NCBI RefSeq assembly: GCF_006265095.1
Contig: NZ_VCNK01000004.1
Span: 248,001-312,000, forward strand
Origin: Phaeobacter sp. B1627
GTDB lineage: Bacteria; Pseudomonadota; Alphaproteobacteria; Rhodobacterales; Rhodobacteraceae
Direction: 5' to 3'
DNA: 64,000 nucleotides
The notes under the pieces are model-generated. The model searched no databases. It was not told the origin of the DNA and saw nothing but the letters and a program-made list of their open reading frames with translations. Positions within the stretch are counted from its first letter, which is position 1. Each line of letters begins with the position of its first letter. Made by a program: the position numbers and the translations under genes. Of this stretch, positions 35,665 through 49,203 are shown piece by piece.

Positions 35665-37179
35665 TTACAGATCCATCAGCAGGCGGCGGGGGTCTTCCAG
35701 CGCTTCTTTGACGCGCACAAGAAAGGTCACGGCCCCTTTGCCGTCTACGATGCGGTGGTCATAGGAGAGCGCCAGATACATCATCGGGCGGATTTCCACC
35801 TTGCCGTTGATCGCCATCGGCCGGTCCTGGATCTTATGCATGCCGAGGATACCGGACTGCGGCGGGTTCAGGATCGGGGAGGACATCAGCGAGCCATATA
35901 CACCGCCGTTGGAGATGGTGAAGGTGCCGCCCTGCATTTCCGCCATCGACAGCTTGCCATCGCGGGCGCGGGCGCCTTTTTCGGCGATCGCCTTCTCGAT
36001 ATCGGCAAAGGACATCGCATCGGCATCACGGATCACCGGCACCACGAGGCCGGTGGGCGTGCCCGCCGCGATGCCCATGTGGACGAAGTTCTTGTAGACG
36101 ATGTCGGTGCCGTCAATTTCTGCGTTGACCTCAGGCACCTCGCGCAGGGCGTGGCAGCACGCCTTGGTGAAGAAGGACATGAAGCCGAGTTTGACTCCGT
36201 GCTTCTTCAGGAACAGATCTTTGTATTCATTGCGCAATGCCATCACCTCGGTCATGTCGACCTCGTTGTAGGTGGTGAGCATCGCAGCGGTGTTCTGGCT
36301 GTCTTTCAGGCGGCGCGCGATGGTCTGGCGCAGGCGGGTCATCTTCACCCGCTCTTCGCGTGCGGCGTCATCTGCGGCAACCGGCGCGCGGGTCGCAGCA
36401 GGAGCCGATGCGGCCGCGGGGGCCGATTTCGCAGCGGCCACAGCGGCGGCGACGTCTTCTTTCATGATCCGGCCGTCGCGACCTGATCCCTGAACATTGG
36501 CGGCGGAGAGCCCGGCCTCGGACATGGCCTTTTCCGCCGACGGCGCATTGGCGATGTCCTTGGATGCGGCGGCGGGGGCTGCGCTTGCAGCAGGCGCAGC
36601 AGCTGGGGCCGCCGCCCCCGAAGTCGCCGTCCCGGCGCCGTCACCGGAGATCACGCCGAGTTTGGCCGAGGCATTCACGGTCGCCCCCTCCTCGGCAGTG
36701 ATTTCTGCCAGAACGCCTGCCGCCGGGGCCGGGACCTCGACGGAGACCTTGTCGGTTTCCAGCTCACAGAGCATTTCGTCCTGAGCAACCGCGTCACCGA
36801 CCTTTTTGAACCAGGTGGAAACGGTGGCCTCTGTCACGCTTTCGCCGAGTGTCGGCACCATCACATCGACCGAACCGGTTTGGGCTGCGGCCGCCGGAGC
36901 GGTTTCTGCTGTCGGCTTGGCCTCGGGCGCTGCCGCCTCGCCGGCTGCGGAGATGTTGGCGAGCAGCGCATCAACGCCGACGGTATCGCCTTCGTTCGCG
37001 ACGATTTCGGCCAGGGTGCCGGCTGTCGGTGCGGGGACCTCGACCGTTACTTTATCTGTTTCCAGTTCGCAGAGCATCTCGTCTTGTGCCACGGCATCGC
37101 CGGGCTTTTTGAACCAGGTTGCGACCGTTGCTTCGGTCACGGATTCGCCCAGGGTGGGCACGCGCACTTCGGTGGTCAT
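35665..37179 (-). CDS. odhB: Dihydrolipoyllysine-residue succinyltransferase OdhB with two lipoyl domains
   Basis: The 504-residue E2 component of 2-oxoglutarate dehydrogenase, transferring succinyl groups to CoA. It has two nearly identical lipoyl domains (about 3-77 and 105-178) with lipoyl lysines K43 and K144, each in ETDKV. Ala/Pro-rich linkers, an E1/E3-binding domain near 208-246 and the catalytic domain follow, with [13 protein letters not shown] holding the active-site His. Most E2o proteins have one lipoyl domain, so the duplication is notable. It is cotranscribed with odhA. Confidence 0.95.
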
Positions 37180-37193
37180 GATCTCAATCTTCC

Positions 37194-40145
37194 TCAGATG
37201 CTCAGCGCTTCATCAACGAGCGCCGCTTGTTGGGCTTTGTGTTGGCTGGCCAGACCCGTTGCGGGCGAGGCCGAGGTGGCGCGACCGACATAGGCCGGAC
37301 GAGTGTGCTTGGCTTTGATGCGGGTGAGAACCCATTCGATATTGGGTTCGATAAAGGTCCATGCGCCCTGGTTTTTAGGCTCTTCCTGACACCAGACCAT
37401 TTCGGCATCCTTGAACCGCTCGAGTTCCTTCACCAGGCTGATCGCGGGGAAGGGATAATATTGCTCGATCCGCATGATGTAGACATCGTCGATGCCACGG
37501 GCATCACGCTCTTCCAGCAGGTCGAAATAGACTTTGCCGGAACACAGAACCACGCGTTTGATCTTCTTGTCTGCGACCAGTTTGGTTGGCGAGGCGCCGA
37601 CCTCCGCATCGTCCCACAGAACCCGGTGGAAAGAGGAGCCGGTGGTGAATTCCTCAGCCTTGCTGACGGCCAGCTTGTGACGCAGCAGCGATTTTGGGGT
37701 CACGAGAATGAGCGGCTTGCGGAAGGTCCGGTGCAGCTGACGCCGCAGGATATGGAAGTAGTTCGCAGGCGTGGTGCAGTTCGCGACGATCCAGTTGTCC
37801 TGACCGCACATCTGCAGGAACCGCTCAAGCCGGGCGGAGGAATGCTCCGGGCCCTGACCCTCAAACCCATGCGGCAACAGGCAGACGAGGCCCGACATCC
37901 GCAACCATTTCGATTCGCCGGATGAGATGAACTGGTCGAACATGATCTGCGCGCCGTTGGCAAAGTCACCAAACTGCGCCTCCCAAAGCGTCAGCGCATT
38001 GGGCTCTGCAAGCGAGTAGCCATATTCAAAACCCAGCACCGCATATTCGGACAGTGCCGAGTCGATCGCCTCGTAATTGGCCTGACCGCTGCGGATGTGG
38101 TTGAGCGGGTAGTAGCGCTCTTCTGTTTCCTGGTTCACGATGCCGGAATGGCGCTGCGAGAAGGTGCCGCGGGTGGAATCCTGACCGGACAGACGCACGG
38201 GGTAGCCTTCGGTCAGAAGCGACCCGAAGGCCAGCGCCTCGCCGGTCGCCCAGTCAAAGCCCTTGCCGGTTTCGAACATCTTCTTGCGCGCATCAAGGAA
38301 GCGGCCAATGGTCTTGTGGACCGGGTAGCCGTCCGGCAGCACCGTCAGACCCCGCCCGACCTCGGCCAGCGTTTCGGGCTTGATCGCGGTTTCGCCGCGC
38401 TGATAATCCTCGTTCTGCTTGTCGAGGTGAGACCAGCGCCCGTCCAGCCAATCGGCCTTGTTCGGCTTGAAGTTCTTGCCGGCTTCGAACTCTTCGTTCA
38501 GATGCGCCTGAAACGCCGCTTTCATATCCTCGATTTCGCCCTCGGGGATCAGACCGTCCTTGACCAGCCGTTCCGTATACAGCGACAGGGTCGTCTTGTG
38601 ACCCTTGATCTTTTTGTACATCAGCGGGTTGGTGAACATCGGTTCGTCACCTTCGTTGTGACCAAACCGGCGATAGCAGAAGATGTCGAGCACCACATCC
38701 TTGTGGAACTTCTGACGGAATTCGGTCGCGACCTTGGCCGCGTGCACGACCGCCTCCGGGTCGTCACCATTGACGTGAAAGATCGGCGCCTCAACCACCA
38801 GCGCGTTGTCGGTGGGATAGGGGGAGGAGCGCGAGAAATGCGGCGCCGTGGTGAACCCGATCTGGTTGTTCACGACGATATGCATTGTGCCGCCCGCCCT
38901 GTGGCCACGTACGCCGGACAAGGCAAAGCATTCGGCCACCACACCCTGACCGGCGAAAGCCGCATCGCCATGCAGCAGGATCGGCAACACGGTCATGCGA
39001 TCCGCATCGTTCATCTGGTCCTGTTTGGCACGCACCTTGCCGAGAACGACGGGGTTCACCGCCTCTAGATGCGAGGGGTTGGCAGTCAGGGACAGGTGCA
39101 CCTTGTTGCCGTCGAATTCGCGGTCAGATGACGCACCGAGATGGTATTTCACGTCGCCGGATCCGTCCACGTCGTCCGGTTTGAAGCTGCCGCCCTGGAA
39201 TTCGTTGAAAATCGCCCGGTAGGGTTTCTGCATCACGTTGGCGAGCACCGACAGCCGGCCCCGGTGGGGCATGCCGATGACGATATCCTTGATGCCAAGG
39301 TTGCCGCCGCGCTTGATGATCTGTTCCATGGCGGGGATCAGGCTTTCGCCACCGTCCAGACCAAATCGCTTGGTCCCCATGTATTTGACGTGCAGAAACT
39401 TCTCAAAACCCTCGGCTTCCACCATCTTGTTGAGGATCGCCTTGCGGCCCTCGCGGGTGAAACGGATTTCCTTGTCGTAGCCTTCGATCCGCTCCTTCAG
39501 CCAGGCGGACTGTTCCGGATCGGAGATATGCATGTACTGCAGCGCAAAGGTGCCGCAGTAGGTGCGTTTGACGATATCGACGATCTGGCGCATGGAGGCC
39601 ACCTGCAGGCCCAGCACATTGTCGATAAAGATCGGCCGGTCCATGTCGGCGTCGGTAAAGCCGTAGGTCTTCGGGTTCAGTTCCGGATGCGAGGCGGCGG
39701 CCCGCATGCCCAGCGGGTCGAGATCGGCCGCCAGGTGCCCGCGAATCCGGTAGGCCCGGATCAGCATCAGGGCCCGGATCGAATCCAGAACCGCCCGCTG
39801 GATCTGCTCATCGGAGACGGCGACCCCTTTTTCGGCGGCTTTGGCCTGGATTTTCTTGCCCGCAGCCTTGGTTTCCACCGGAGCTGGCCACTCGCCGGTC
39901 AGCGCCCCCGTCAGGTCGTCATCCGGTGCAGGGGGCCAGTCGGCACGTGCCCAGGACGGCCCCGCAGCCTCTTTCTTGACGTCGAGCTCAGCATCACCCA
40001 TGGCGCGAAAGAACTCGGCCCAGGCCGCATCCACGGCGTTCGGGTCATTGGCGTATTGGGCATAAAGCTGCTCCAGATACTCCGCGTTGTGCCCCTGCAT
40101 GAAAGAGGACGCGTGGAAGATATCGTTGGGGCTTTGTTCGGTCAT
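37194..40145 (-). CDS. odhA: 2-oxoglutarate dehydrogenase E1 component
   Basis: A 983-residue ThDP enzyme that decarboxylates 2-oxoglutarate and succinylates the lipoyl group of OdhB. The N-terminal [20 protein letters not shown] region, [28 protein letters not shown] (thiamine site) and [15 protein letters not shown] are all characteristic. ATG 40145 gives family length; the frame continues upstream without homology. The gap to odhB is 14 bp. The usual synonym is sucA. Confidence 0.96.
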
Positions 40146-40374
40146 GGGGTTGCCTCTTGTGCGTTTGGACCGTAAGCGATCAGGCCCTTGGTCGGGGACT
40201 GAAAGCCCGAAAAAGGGCGAAATATTCCGTCTCAGTATCGTGGCGGATCTTGCGGCGAAGGCGGCCATTTGGCCGCATCGGCGACAGGATCCCAGTGCAG
40301 GCAAGGGGCGGACGTCAAACGCCCACCCCAGAACAGGCTTGCGAACCCGGGTTTATTTCGGGACCGCAGGCGCA

Positions 40375-41262
40375 TCAGCCTTGTGCGATCGCTTTCTGCA
40401 CCGCTTCGCCGAGCGTGGCGGGGCTGTCGGCGACGACAATGCCTGCGGACTTCATCGCTTCGATCTTGTCCTCGGCACCGCCTTTGCCACCGGCGACAAT
40501 CGCGCCCGCATGGCCCATGCGGCGGCCCGGAGGTGCCGTGCGGCCGGCAATGAAGCCTGCTGTCGGCTTCCAGCGGCCCTTTTTCTTCTGCTCTGCCATG
40601 AATTCCGCCGCTTCTTCCTCGGCAGAGCCACCGATCTCGCCGATCATGATGATCGACTGGGTCTCGGGATCGTCAAGGAACATGTCCAGCACGTCGATGT
40701 GCTCGGTGCCCTTGATCGGGTCGCCGCCGATACCCACAGCAGAGGACTGGCCGAGGCCGATGTCGGAGGTCTGTTTCACCGCCTCATAGGTCAGGGTGCC
40801 GGAGCGCGACACAACGCCGACCGAGCCACGCTTGTGGATGTGGCCGGGCATGATGCCGATCTTGCAGGCATCCGGGGTGATCACGCCGGGGCAGTTCGGG
40901 CCAATGAGGCGCGATTTGGAGCCCTCGAGTGCCCGTTTCACCTTCATCATGTCCAGAACCGGAATGCCTTCGGTGATGCAGACAATGAGTTCCATCTCGG
41001 CGTCGATCGCCTCAAGGATGGAATCGGCTGCAAACGGCGGCGGCACGTAGATCACGGATGCATTGGCCTCGGTCACGTGCTTGGCTTCATGCACGGAGTT
41101 GAAGACCGGCAGGCCGAGATGGTCCTGACCGCCTTTGCCCGGAGTGACGCCGCCGACCATCTTGGTGCCATAGGCGATGGCCTGCTCGGAGTGGAAGGTG
41201 CCCTGCGAGCCGGTGAAGCCCTGACAGATGACTTTGGTGTTTTCGTCGATAAGGACTGCCAT
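40375..41262 (-). CDS. sucD: Succinyl-CoA synthetase alpha subunit SucD
   Basis: A 295-residue ADP-forming succinyl-CoA ligase subunit that binds CoA and carries the phosphohistidine. Typical blocks are [29 protein letters not shown], and [11 protein letters not shown] with the active His. With SucC it makes ATP or GTP from succinyl-CoA. It lies in the order sucC, small membrane protein, sucD, odhA; the odhA start is 229 bp further on, a gap that may hold an internal promoter. Confidence 0.96.
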
Positions 41263-41554: not shown

Positions 41555-42748
41555 TCAGCCCTTGACCGCTTTCACGATCTTCTCGGCACCATCGGACAGG
41601 TCATCCGCCGCGATCACGTTCAGGCCGGAAGATGCGATGATCTCTTTGCCCTTCTCGACGTTGGTACCCTCAAGGCGCACCACCAGCGGAACCTGTAGGC
41701 CGACTTCTTTCACAGCGGCGATCACGCCCTCGGCGATGACGTCGCAGCGCATGATGCCGCCGAAGATGTTCACGAGGATGCCTTTGACGTTCGGATCAGA
41801 GGTGATGATCTTGAAGGCCTCGGTCACTTTCTCTTTGGTGGCGCCGCCGCCGACGTCGAGGAAGTTCGCAGGCTCCGCACCGTAGAGTTTGATGATGTCC
41901 ATGGTGGCCATCGCCAGACCCGCGCCGTTCACCATGCAGCCGATCTCACCGTCGAGCGCGATGTAGTTCAGGTCATACTTGGAGGCTTCCAGCTCTTTGG
42001 GGTCTTCCTCGGTGGTGTCGCGCAGCTCGGCGATGTCGGCGTGGCGATAGATTGCGTTGCCGTCAAAACCGACCTTGGCATCCAGCACCTTGAGATCACC
42101 GCTGTCGGAGACGATCAGCGGGTTGATCTCCAGCATCTCCATGTCCTTGTCCATGAAGGCCTGATAGAGCTGACCCATCAATTTGACGCATTGTTTGATC
42201 TGTGCGCCCTTGAGGCCGAGGGTGAAGGCGATCCGGCGGCCGTGATAGGCCTGATATCCGGTGGCGGGATCAACCGAGAAAGACAGGATCTTTTCCGGGG
42301 TCGCGGCGGCAACTTCCTCGATGTCCATGCCACCTTCGGTGGAGCAGACGAACGACACGCGCGAGGTCACGCGATCCACCAGCAGTGCGAGGTAGAGTTC
42401 GGTTTCGATGCCGGAGCCCGCTTCGATGTAGATGCGGTTGACTTGTTTTCCCGCAGGGCCGGTCTGGTGCGTTACCAGAGTGCGCCCGAGCATCTTTTTC
42501 GCTTCTTCTGACGCTTCTTCAACCGATTTGGTCAGGCGCACGCCGCCTTTTTCACCGGCATCGGCCTCCTTGAAGGAGCCCTTGCCGCGACCGCCTGCAT
42601 GGATCTGGGCTTTGACAACCCAGAGCGGGCCGTCCAGCTCGCCTGCAGCGGTTTTTGCCTCGTCGGCTTTTAGTACGACCCGCCCATCGGAAACCGGCGC
42701 GCCGTAGCTGCGGAGGAGGGCCTTGGCCTGATATTCGTGGATGTTCAT
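41555..42748 (-). CDS. sucC: Succinyl-CoA synthetase beta subunit SucC
   Basis: A 397-residue ATP-grasp subunit that binds nucleotide and succinate. It begins [19 protein letters not shown], and shows the conserved [16 protein letters not shown] and [12 protein letters not shown] with [14 protein letters not shown]. It heads the sucC-sucD-odhA-odhB-lpd operon. Upstream lies the paired TGTGATCACA element. The ribosome binding site is weak (GGGACAG). Confidence 0.96.
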
Positions 42749-42856
42749 CTGAAACTGTCCCGTCTGGCTACACTTGTCCCTTGTTAGTACGCCTTCTTCA
42801 AACAGGAGGTTAAAGGGTTTTTTGCTGGACTGGCGCTAAATGATGAAGATTTTCTG

Positions 42857-42895
42857 GATATGTGATCACACGCTCCGACAGTGTGATCACATATC
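42857..42895. promoter_or_regulatory. Paired TGTGATCACA operator upstream of sucC
   Basis: GATATGTGATCACA and TGTGATCACATATC form a perfect 14-bp inverted repeat around 11 bp. Each arm contains the 10-bp palindrome TGTGATCACA (42861-42870 and 42882-42891), with centres 21 bp apart, two turns of the helix. The nearer box is 112 bp from the sucC start codon. The same pair with the same spacing occurs upstream of sdhC. Confidence 0.8.
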
Positions 42896-45064: not shown

Positions 45065-45388
45065 TCAGGCGTCGGTGTCCATGGCGGGAAGCGCTTCGGC
45101 CAGGATCTCGTAGGACTGACCAGAGGCGACCAGACAGGTCATGCCATTTGCCGTGGTGACGGTGATGGTCCAGGATCCCGTTTCACCCGAGGCAAAGGTC
45201 TCCATTACCATGCCTTGCTGGCCCATACCGATACTCTGGCGGCTCTCGCCATATTTCTCGGCGAGCCGTTTGATCACAAGCTCTCTCGGGGCACAGTTTT
45301 GCCCCTGGGCTTGACTCTGGGCCGCGGCGGTTTGTGCGGAAACTGCCAGTGCAAGGCCCGCGAACAATGTAAAAAGCGTCTTTTTCAT
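45065..45388 (-). CDS. Small exported protein of unknown function
   Basis: A 107-residue protein with a clear signal peptide (MKKTLFTLFAGLALAVSAQT, cleavage after AAA). The mature part of about 85 residues contains CAPRELVIKRLAEKYGESRQ, two cysteines that could pair, and a beta-rich segment ending in MTCLVASGQSYEIL. ATG 45388 follows AAAGGGG. The pattern is common in Rhodobacteraceae secreted proteins; no function is known. Divergent from mcl2. Confidence 0.7.
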   Translation of the reverse strand: MKKTLFTLFAGLALAVSAQTAAAQSQAQGQNCAPRELVIKRLAEKYGESRQSIGMGQQGMVMETFASGETGSWTITVTTANGMTCLVASGQSYEILAEALPAMDTDA

Positions 45389-48668: not shown

Positions 48669-48699
48669 TGTGATCACGCTATTCGGGGATGTGATCACA
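48669..48699. promoter_or_regulatory. Paired TGTGATCACA operator upstream of sdhC
   Basis: TGTGATCACG (48669-48678) and TGTGATCACA (48690-48699) lie exactly 21 bp apart centre to centre, the same arrangement as upstream of sucC. The nearer box is 114 bp from the sdhC start. Shared sequence, spacing and distance imply a common regulator. Confidence 0.8.
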
Positions 48700-48752
48700 T
48701 AGGTCAATATTTACCTCAAACCGAAGCGATAACTGGCAATTTTTACCACTCG

Positions 48753-48772
48753 TTTGCGTGACAGTGCGCAAA
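48753..48772. promoter_or_regulatory. Inverted repeat close to sdhC
   Basis: TTTGCG and CGCAAA form a perfect 6-bp inverted repeat around 8 bp, 41 bp before the sdhC start. It overlaps a weak -35/-10-like pair (TTGCGT and TAGGAT). It could be a second operator or part of the core promoter. Confidence 0.35.
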
Positions 48773-48813
48773 AATAGGATAGAACGTCGTCAGCTAACCG
48801 GAAAGGAGCCACC

Positions 48814-49203
48814 ATGGCCGATGTCAATCGGGGCAATCGCCCGCTTTCGCCCTTTATGATTGGGCCGTACTACCGGCCGCAGCTTACCTCCATCTCCTCC
48901 ATCATGGTCCGGATCACCGGCATTGCGGCGCTGGGTGCGGCGCTTCTGGTGGTGTGGTGGCTGTTGGCGGCTGCGACCTCCGCGTCGGGATTTGCCTTCA
49001 TTGATGGCCTCCTGCGCAGCATCCTTGGCGATATTGTGTTGCTGGGCGCCACCTGGGCGATCTTTTATCACATGCTGGGTCGCCTGCGTCACGTCATCTG
49101 GGATTTCGGCTACTGCCTCGAAGTCGCCATCTCCGAGAAAATGGCGATCGGCATGTTTGTGGGCGCCACCGTCCTGACCATCCTCGCGGCGATCTTGGTG
49201 TAA
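48814..49203 (+). CDS. sdhC: Succinate dehydrogenase cytochrome b556 subunit SdhC
   Basis: A 129-residue membrane subunit with three helices that binds haem b and ubiquinone together with SdhD. RPLSPFMIGPYYRPQLTSISS contains the signature SPxxx-YxxxxxSxxS, and the haem ligand His lies in FYHMLGRLRHVIWD. AAAGGAGCCACC is a strong ribosome binding site. It is the first gene of the sdh operon. Confidence 0.94.
   Translation: MADVNRGNRPLSPFMIGPYYRPQLTSISSIMVRITGIAALGAALLVVWWLLAAATSASGFAFIDGLLRSILGDIVLLGATWAIFYHMLGRLRHVIWDFGYCLEVAISEKMAIGMFVGATVLTILAAILV

What the first reader, a model, noticed from the sequence alone, without database searches (positions are those of the whole stretch)
42857..42895. 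Paired TGTGATCACA boxes upstream of sucC match a pair upstream of sdhC
Seen: a perfect 14-bp inverted repeat whose arms each hold TGTGATCACA, with centres 21 bp apart, 112 bp before the sucC start. The sdhC upstream region has the same two boxes, again 21 bp apart, 114 bp before its start. Two complete palindromes on the same helix face, repeated with the same geometry at two TCA operons, are very unlikely by chance. Inference: a dimeric regulator binds both boxes cooperatively and co-controls 2-oxoglutarate dehydrogenase/succinyl-CoA synthetase and succinate dehydrogenase. CRP sites (TGTGA-N6-TCACA) do not fit because the half-sites abut.
Basis: partly seen in the sequence, partly recalled or inferred. 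Interest (0 to 1): 0.85.

Follow-up and report, generated by a model that had tools for sequence, protein, structure and literature searches.

The report
Twin AkgR switches before TCA genes
Two copies of a 10-letter DNA palindrome, two helix turns apart, sit before two key energy-metabolism operons and are very probably docking sites for AkgR, a regulator already described in a relative; the twin layout is kept across most sampled members of the bacterial family.

Summary
Two perfect TGTGATCACA boxes lie 21 bp apart, 112 bp before sucC; a pair one base off (TGTGATCACG) lies 114 bp before sdhC. The 4.35-Mb genome holds 5 perfect decamers: 3 are here, one sits just before a GntR/FCD regulator gene, one before an ABC-transporter gene. 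Two GTGATCAC cores 14-38 bp apart occur in 267 of 295 sampled genomes of the family (reversed-pattern control: 1 of 295). In the first fetched set, 72 of 76 distinct pairs precede sucC, sdhC, sucA or a fumC-like gene, all spaced 20-21 bp. The GntR gene co-occurs with the pairs (Fisher p = 4e-21) and carries the exact box near its start at 97 of 110 loci. Published work gives GTGATCAC to AkgR and predicts that the GntR protein RSP_0981 controls these operons in Rhodobacter sphaeroides. So this is the AkgR regulon, known in kind. New to me, and confirmed on 37 held-out genera: A/T tracts phased every ~10 bp between boxes and promoter at both operons, suggesting activation from about -90 to -120 along curved or polymerase-contacting DNA.

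The parts
42861..42870 (.). Box nearer to sucC, TGTGATCACA (perfect)
42882..42891 (.). Box farther from sucC, TGTGATCACA (perfect), 21 bp from the first
42858..42871 (.). Left arm of the 14-bp inverted repeat
42881..42894 (.). Right arm of the 14-bp inverted repeat
42816..42858 (-). Stretch between boxes and inferred sucC promoter in which the aligned orthologous regions carry A/T tracts every ~10 bp
   Evidence: property of the aligned set; offsets 3-45 from the proximal core
42784..42814 (-). Inferred sucC core promoter (-35-like TTTAAC 42814-42809; -10-like TACTAA 42789-42784)
   Evidence: T-rich element 45-46 bp after the core in 26 of 45 and 15 of 37 regions; a general sigma-70 score puts the best site at 45-50 in only 13 of 45; not mapped experimentally
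41555..42748 (-). sucC, succinyl-CoA synthetase beta subunit; first gene after the boxes
   Evidence: Pfam ATP-grasp_2 and Ligase_CoA
40375..41262 (-). sucD, succinyl-CoA synthetase alpha subunit
   Evidence: Pfam CoA_binding and Ligase_CoA
37194..40304 (-). sucA, 2-oxoglutarate dehydrogenase E1 (frame as listed; true start not determined)
   Evidence: Pfam E1_dh, OxoGdeHyase_C
35665..37179 (-). sucB-type acyltransferase (E2)
   Evidence: Pfam 2-oxoacid_dh, Biotin_lipoyl
48669..48678 (.). Box farther from sdhC, TGTGATCACG (one mismatch)
48690..48699 (.). Box nearer to sdhC, TGTGATCACA (perfect), 21 bp from the other
48702..48744 (+). Stretch between boxes and inferred sdhC promoter with phased A/T tracts in the aligned set
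48758..48785 (+). Inferred sdhC core promoter (GTGACA 48758-48763; TAGAAC 48780-48785)
   Evidence: GTGAC 57-60 bp after the box core in 31 of 41 discovery and 28 of 37 validation regions; general sigma-70 score best at 57-62 in 28 of 41
48814..49203 (+). sdhC, succinate dehydrogenase membrane subunit
   Evidence: Pfam Sdh_cyt

Best explanation
The boxes are paired operators of AkgR, a GntR-family (FCD-domain) regulator encoded elsewhere in this genome (G000:C44:157490-158149, with its own box at C44:157473-157482). Each 10-bp palindrome binds one AkgR dimer; two dimers sit two helical turns apart on one DNA face. Bound about 88/109 bp upstream of the inferred sucC transcription start and about 97/118 bp upstream of the inferred sdhC one, they switch on the sucC-led operon (succinyl-CoA synthetase and 2-oxoglutarate dehydrogenase) and the sdh operon, probably as an upstream (class I-like) activator that contacts RNA polymerase along a helically phased series of A/T tracts. 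A single box at the start of its own gene lets AkgR limit its own synthesis. Shown: boxes, spacing, conservation, co-occurrence, box at the regulator gene, A/T phasing. From papers: motif, activator role and predicted targets in R. sphaeroides. Inferred: binding here, dimer pairing, activation mechanism, promoter positions, self-limitation.
For: GTGATCAC is reported among AkgR binding sites and AkgR is called a transcriptional activator (PMC6365646, passage). RSP_0981 (GntR family) is predicted to regulate RSP_0967-6 (succinyl-CoA synthetase), RSP_0974-6 (succinate dehydrogenase) and RSP_0965-62 (2-oxoglutarate dehydrogenase) (PMC4344238, passage). The regulator has GntR + FCD domains; 97 of 110 orthologous loci keep the exact box within -150..+60 of the gene start, against 1 of 3392 control tiles. 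Pair and orthologue (E <= 1e-50) co-occur: 261 both, 6 pair only, 7 protein only, 21 neither, of 295; p = 4.3e-21. In the first fetched set all 72 pairs with 20-21 bp spacing precede sucC (37), sdhC (33), sucA (1) or a fumC-like Lyase_1 gene (1); the other 4 of 76 have spacings 18, 18, 27, 31. Held-out set of 37 genera: 37 sucC and 37 sdhC regions, no other 20-21 bp pair in the fetched stretches. Two three-box promoters keep the phase: steps 21/21 at sucC and 32/21 at sdhC. Boxes lie upstream of a promoter-like element at a near-fixed distance.
Against: No R. sphaeroides AkgR sequence could be compared, so orthology rests on motif, targets, domain make-up and linkage (gene within 20 kb of a pair in 8 of about 53 genomes, read by eye; in the others, this one included, it is farther off or on another contig). 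That RSP_0981 and AkgR are one protein is recalled, and the primary AkgR paper is not held. 7 of 295 genomes have the orthologue but no exact pair, 6 a pair without a recognised orthologue. 2 of 110 regulator loci have no box (L067, L108; both in genomes with a second copy). One 21-bp pair in the family lies inside an open reading frame unrelated to the TCA cycle (L228). Other regulators also act on these operons in R. sphaeroides: a paper lists succinate and 2-oxoglutarate dehydrogenase in the CceR regulon there (PMC11323563) and another predicts NtrC for sdh. No expression or binding data for this organism; activation versus repression cannot be settled from sequence. The structure model was poor (mean pLDDT 65.4) and was not used.
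Confidence: 0.83

Rival explanations
1. The regulator is AkgR, but at sucC and sdhC it represses (by looping, or by blocking RNA polymerase contacts) and is released by a TCA metabolite.
For: Many GntR/FCD proteins repress (recalled), and the box at its own gene lies at the start.
Against: At sucC and sdhC the boxes lie about 45-60 bp upstream of the inferred -35 element and do not overlap the inferred core promoter. A paper calls AkgR a transcriptional activator.
Confidence: 0.12
2. Another regulator binds the boxes, for example the FCD paralogue at G000:C49:57706-58305 (39% identical).
For: The genome has 23 FCD-domain matches; the paralogue is the genome's second match to P0001. A different GntR/FCD gene outside the family sits beside a similar pair (L244).
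Against: Of the 5 perfect decamers in the genome, the only one found beside an FCD gene is at P0001. Co-occurrence with pairs and its own box are kept across the family. The paralogue's upstream region was not inspected.
Confidence: 0.05
3. The phased A/T tracts are an ordinary feature of strong promoters (UP element and curvature) and have nothing to do with AkgR.
For: Phased upstream A-tracts and alpha-CTD contacts are general promoter features (recalled). One of four mdh upstream windows shows a weaker 10-bp signal, power 2.04 against 1.04 shuffled, and windows upstream of the boxes reach 1.62 against 1.03.
Against: Power is 4.58 and 4.24 between boxes and promoter, but 0.96-1.62 upstream of the boxes and 1.16-2.04 in the mdh windows. 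The phase is fixed relative to the boxes at both operons although the promoter element lies 9-13 bp farther away at sdhC.
Confidence: 0.4
4. Chance, or a DNA-structure or methylation feature (GATC core) unrelated to a regulator.
For: The core contains GATC.
Against: Controls; near-confinement of 20-21 bp pairs in the family to TCA genes (one exception, L228).
Confidence: 0.01

Closest known systems
AkgR (RSP_0981) regulon of Rhodobacter sphaeroides
   Same: GntR-family regulator; GTGATCAC motif; succinyl-CoA synthetase, 2-oxoglutarate dehydrogenase and succinate dehydrogenase genes.
   Different: The fixed two-box spacing, the own-gene box and the phased A/T tracts are not in the passages I could read; the primary paper was not available.
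CRP/FNR sites
   Same: Similar half-site letters; upstream activator positions.
   Different: Half-sites abut here with no 6-bp gap, and the co-occurring regulator is GntR/FCD.
E. coli McbR (PDB 4p9f), nearest solved relative by sequence
   Same: Matches P0001 at E = 5.7e-20 over residues 24-216.
   Different: Different targets and motif (recalled).
PS417_07240 of Pseudomonas simiae
   Same: GntR-like protein with proposed GTGATCAC operator.
   Different: Proposed to control a deoxyribonate gene cluster.

Membership tests
AkgR regulon | Regulator is a GntR-family protein | tested here: met
   GntR 1.2e-12 and FCD 2.5e-16
AkgR regulon | Operator contains GTGATCAC | tested here: met
   motif source
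AkgR regulon | Sites before the succinyl-CoA synthetase / 2-oxoglutarate dehydrogenase and succinate dehydrogenase operons | tested here: met
   target list
AkgR regulon | Regulator is orthologous to RSP_0981 | tested here: inconclusive
   No named R. sphaeroides sequence to hand; a 71.7% identical copy with box in Paracoccus denitrificans; gene within 20 kb of a pair in 8 of about 53 genomes (by eye)
AkgR regulon | Regulator activates these operons | not testable with these tools
   needs expression data; box position fits activation
CRP/FNR sites | Half-sites TGTGA and TCACA separated by 6 bp | tested here: not met
   TGTGATCACA, half-sites abut
Class I-type activator promoters | Activator sites upstream of -35 at helically related distances | tested here: inconclusive
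   Boxes at a near-fixed distance upstream of a promoter-like element, 9-13 bp farther at sdhC than sucC; transcription starts are inferred, the sucC promoter only weakly
Class I-type activator promoters | Contact with the alpha C-terminal domain of RNA polymerase | not testable with these tools
   none

The most novel reading that the evidence does not exclude
AkgR promoters form a rigid activation module: two regulator dimers two turns apart, followed by A/T tracts about one helical turn apart (offsets ~11, 21, 31, 41 from the proximal box core) leading to the core promoter. The tracts are kept as A-or-T rather than as fixed letters, which suggests selection on DNA shape. They may bend the DNA or offer successive contact points to RNA polymerase, so that a GntR/FCD protein can activate from around -90 to -120.
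Probability: 0.4. Interest if true: 0.62.

Novelty: new member of a known kind. Interest (0 to 1): 0.48.

Why it matters
It ties a conserved operator to a named regulator across a large bacterial family (294 genera sampled), so that co-control of two TCA-cycle steps becomes predictable from sequence. If the phased A/T tracts matter, these promoters would be a simple natural test bed for how DNA shape carries an activator's effect over about 100 bp.

Tried and rejected
Further paired sites in the same genome: the only 1-mismatch pair (L212) lies inside a 544-residue open frame; the search with up to 3 mismatches returned 82 places against 3 for the reversed pattern and was not pursued. Outside the family (class sample, 318 genomes) 10 had a pair; 5 of them belong to the family. 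Of the other 5, three (L245, L246, L251) lie inside longer open frames; two (L243, L244, one genus) lie by TonB-receptor genes (plug domain in L243; L244's receptor by eye), L244 also beside a GntR/FCD gene. Protein matches outside the family were 1.2e-43 or weaker.

The structure model was too weak to search with. Literature searches. Passages seen: PMC6365646, PMC4344238, PMC11323563, PMC5343134, PMC4419725; in PMC7471390, PMC5507952 and PMC8557541 only a reference-list entry. Other papers were seen as listings with the start of the abstract. The AkgR paper itself (mBio 2015) was not held; what I say of it comes from citing papers or recall. I make no firm claim that the paired layout or the phased tracts are unpublished.

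Full report
What is there. Both boxes before sucC are perfect TGTGATCACA, 21 bp apart, held in a 14-bp inverted repeat. At sdhC the far box is TGTGATCACG and the near one perfect, again 21 bp apart. Pfam supports sucC, sdhC, sdhD and the flavoprotein subunit, with mdh upstream of the sucC boxes, and sucD, sucA and a sucB-type gene after sucC. In the whole genome (4,346,721 bases, 134 contigs) the perfect decamer occurs 5 times and the core pair with a gap of 6-30 bases twice, here and at sdhC, against 0 for the reversed pattern. The nearest named relative of the regulator is from Tritonibacter horizontis (97% identity).

The other two perfect boxes. One lies at C44:157473-157482, 7 bp before the ATG of a 220-residue protein with GntR and FCD domains (P0001). 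The other lies 116 bp before a gene with an SBP_bac_5 (ABC-transporter binding protein) domain (L002). The latter box is kept in 4 (L276, L277, L279, L280) of the 10 best same-genus loci, this genome included; L280 has a second, imperfect box 20 bp away; the other 6 lack it. It looks like a recent addition to the regulon.

Conservation. In 295 genomes of the family (294 genera), 267 have at least one pair GTGATCAC-N6..30-GTGATCAC; the reversed pattern occurs in 1. The first fetched set held 76 distinct pairs: 37 before sucC, 33 before sdhC, 6 elsewhere by that script. Two of the 6, both spaced 21 bp, precede a 2-oxoglutarate dehydrogenase E1 gene (L058) and a Lyase_1 gene that I read as fumC (L209). 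The last four have spacings 18, 18, 27 and 31, three of them inside long open reading frames. So in that set 72 of 72 pairs spaced 20-21 bp precede TCA genes. A larger discovery set had 86 sucC/sdhC regions and 5 unassigned 20-21-bp pairs: the two above, two inside longer open frames (L228 in the family, L245 outside it), and L244 from outside the family. A held-out set from 37 other genera gave 37 sucC and 37 sdhC regions and no unassigned pair.

The regulator. Orthologues of P0001 (E <= 1e-50) and pairs co-occur: both 261, pair only 6, protein only 7, neither 21 (Fisher p = 4.3e-21; relatedness is not corrected for). At 110 regulator loci the best match to the decamer near the gene start is exact in 97, one mismatch in 8, two in 3, four in 2; control tiles hold the exact box in 1 of 3392. 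Most boxes start 2-25 bp before the start position inferred from the query, so binding there should hinder the gene's own expression (inference). Paracoccus denitrificans has a 71.7% identical copy with a box 8 bp before its ATG.

Name. [quoted passage not shown] sphaeroides (passage). PMC4344238 predicts that RSP_0981, a GntR-family regulator, controls the succinyl-CoA synthetase, succinate dehydrogenase and 2-oxoglutarate dehydrogenase genes (passage). That RSP_0981 is AkgR I recall; no call shows it, and I could not compare sequences with it. The regulator gene lies within 20 kb of a suc/sdh pair in 8 of about 53 genomes for which both places were listed (by eye), in keeping with the neighbouring locus numbers in R. 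sphaeroides. Other inputs exist there: a paper places succinate and 2-oxoglutarate dehydrogenase in the CceR regulon of R. sphaeroides but not of P. denitrificans, and NtrC is predicted for sdh.

Promoter layout. Counted from the proximal box core, sdhC regions show GTGAC at 57-60 in 31 of 41 discovery and 28 of 37 validation regions. sucC regions show a T-rich element at 45-46 in 26 of 45 and 15 of 37; the sucC pattern was chosen after seeing the discovery set. A general sigma-70 score puts its best site at 57-62 in 28 of 41 sdhC regions, but at 45-50 in only 13 of 45 sucC regions, so the sucC promoter is less certain. Taking these as -35 elements puts the boxes near -88/-109 (sucC) and -97/-118 (sdhC). 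The two layouts differ by 9-13 bp, about one helical turn.

Phased A/T tracts. Between boxes and promoter, A+T content peaks near offsets 11, 21, 31 and 41. With peaks and troughs set on the discovery regions, the difference on the held-out set was 0.536 (sucC) and 0.516 (sdhC), against a rotation null of 0 with sd 0.05-0.06 (0 of 5000 each); upstream of the boxes it was -0.009. A measure that ignores phase gave 4.58 (82 sucC) and 4.24 (78 sdhC) against 1.0 shuffled, 1.16-2.04 for four windows of 48 mdh upstream regions, and 0.96-1.62 upstream of the boxes; some control windows are thus also modestly above shuffled. At sucC offsets 10 and 11 all 82 sequences have A or T, in near-equal numbers (41/41 and 40/42), so A-or-T is kept, not a letter. 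The genera are related, so the sequences are not independent; letter swapping argues against plain inheritance.

More boxes, same phase. One genus has three boxes at steps 21/21 before sucC, another 32/21 before sdhC. A third (G265) has 10 pairs genome-wide, several oddly spaced, including one 22 bp apart before a fumC-like Lyase_1 gene.

Reach. In 318 genomes across the class, 10 had a pair (gap 10-15), 5 of them in the family, which are all the family members in that sample; P0001 matches at E <= 1e-50 were confined to those 5. In this sample the layout is a family trait.

Verdict. What may be new is the strict pair geometry across the family and, above all, the phased A/T tracts.

Noticed in passing
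window 42816-42858 and 48702-48744 (aligned set of 160 regions): A/T tracts about every 10 bp between the boxes and the inferred promoters, conserved as A-or-T and in phase with the boxes.
   Followed up: yes
L276, L277, L279, L280 (own genome C1:300589-300598): Box before an SBP_bac_5 ABC-transporter gene in part of the genus; L280 has a second imperfect box 20 bp away.
   Followed up: partly
L359-L362 (G265): One genus has 10 core pairs with odd spacings, some near a Peptidase_C26 amidotransferase-like gene and one 22-bp pair before a fumC-like gene; perhaps an enlarged or drifted regulon.
   Followed up: partly
L243, L244: Outside the family, pairs 22 and 21 bp apart near TonB-receptor genes, one beside another GntR/FCD gene: related regulators may use the same box.
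   Followed up: partly
P0001 residues 141, 145, 188, 210: In all 111 aligned sequences the positions that I take for the usual FCD metal site read N, H, H, D (canonical D, H, H, H is recalled), so metal or ligand binding may differ.
   Followed up: no
L108, L109: One genome has two regulator copies, only one of which carries the box.
   Followed up: no
window 45269-45278: A one-mismatch single box (TTTGATCACA) inside listed open reading frames, probably chance.
   Followed up: no
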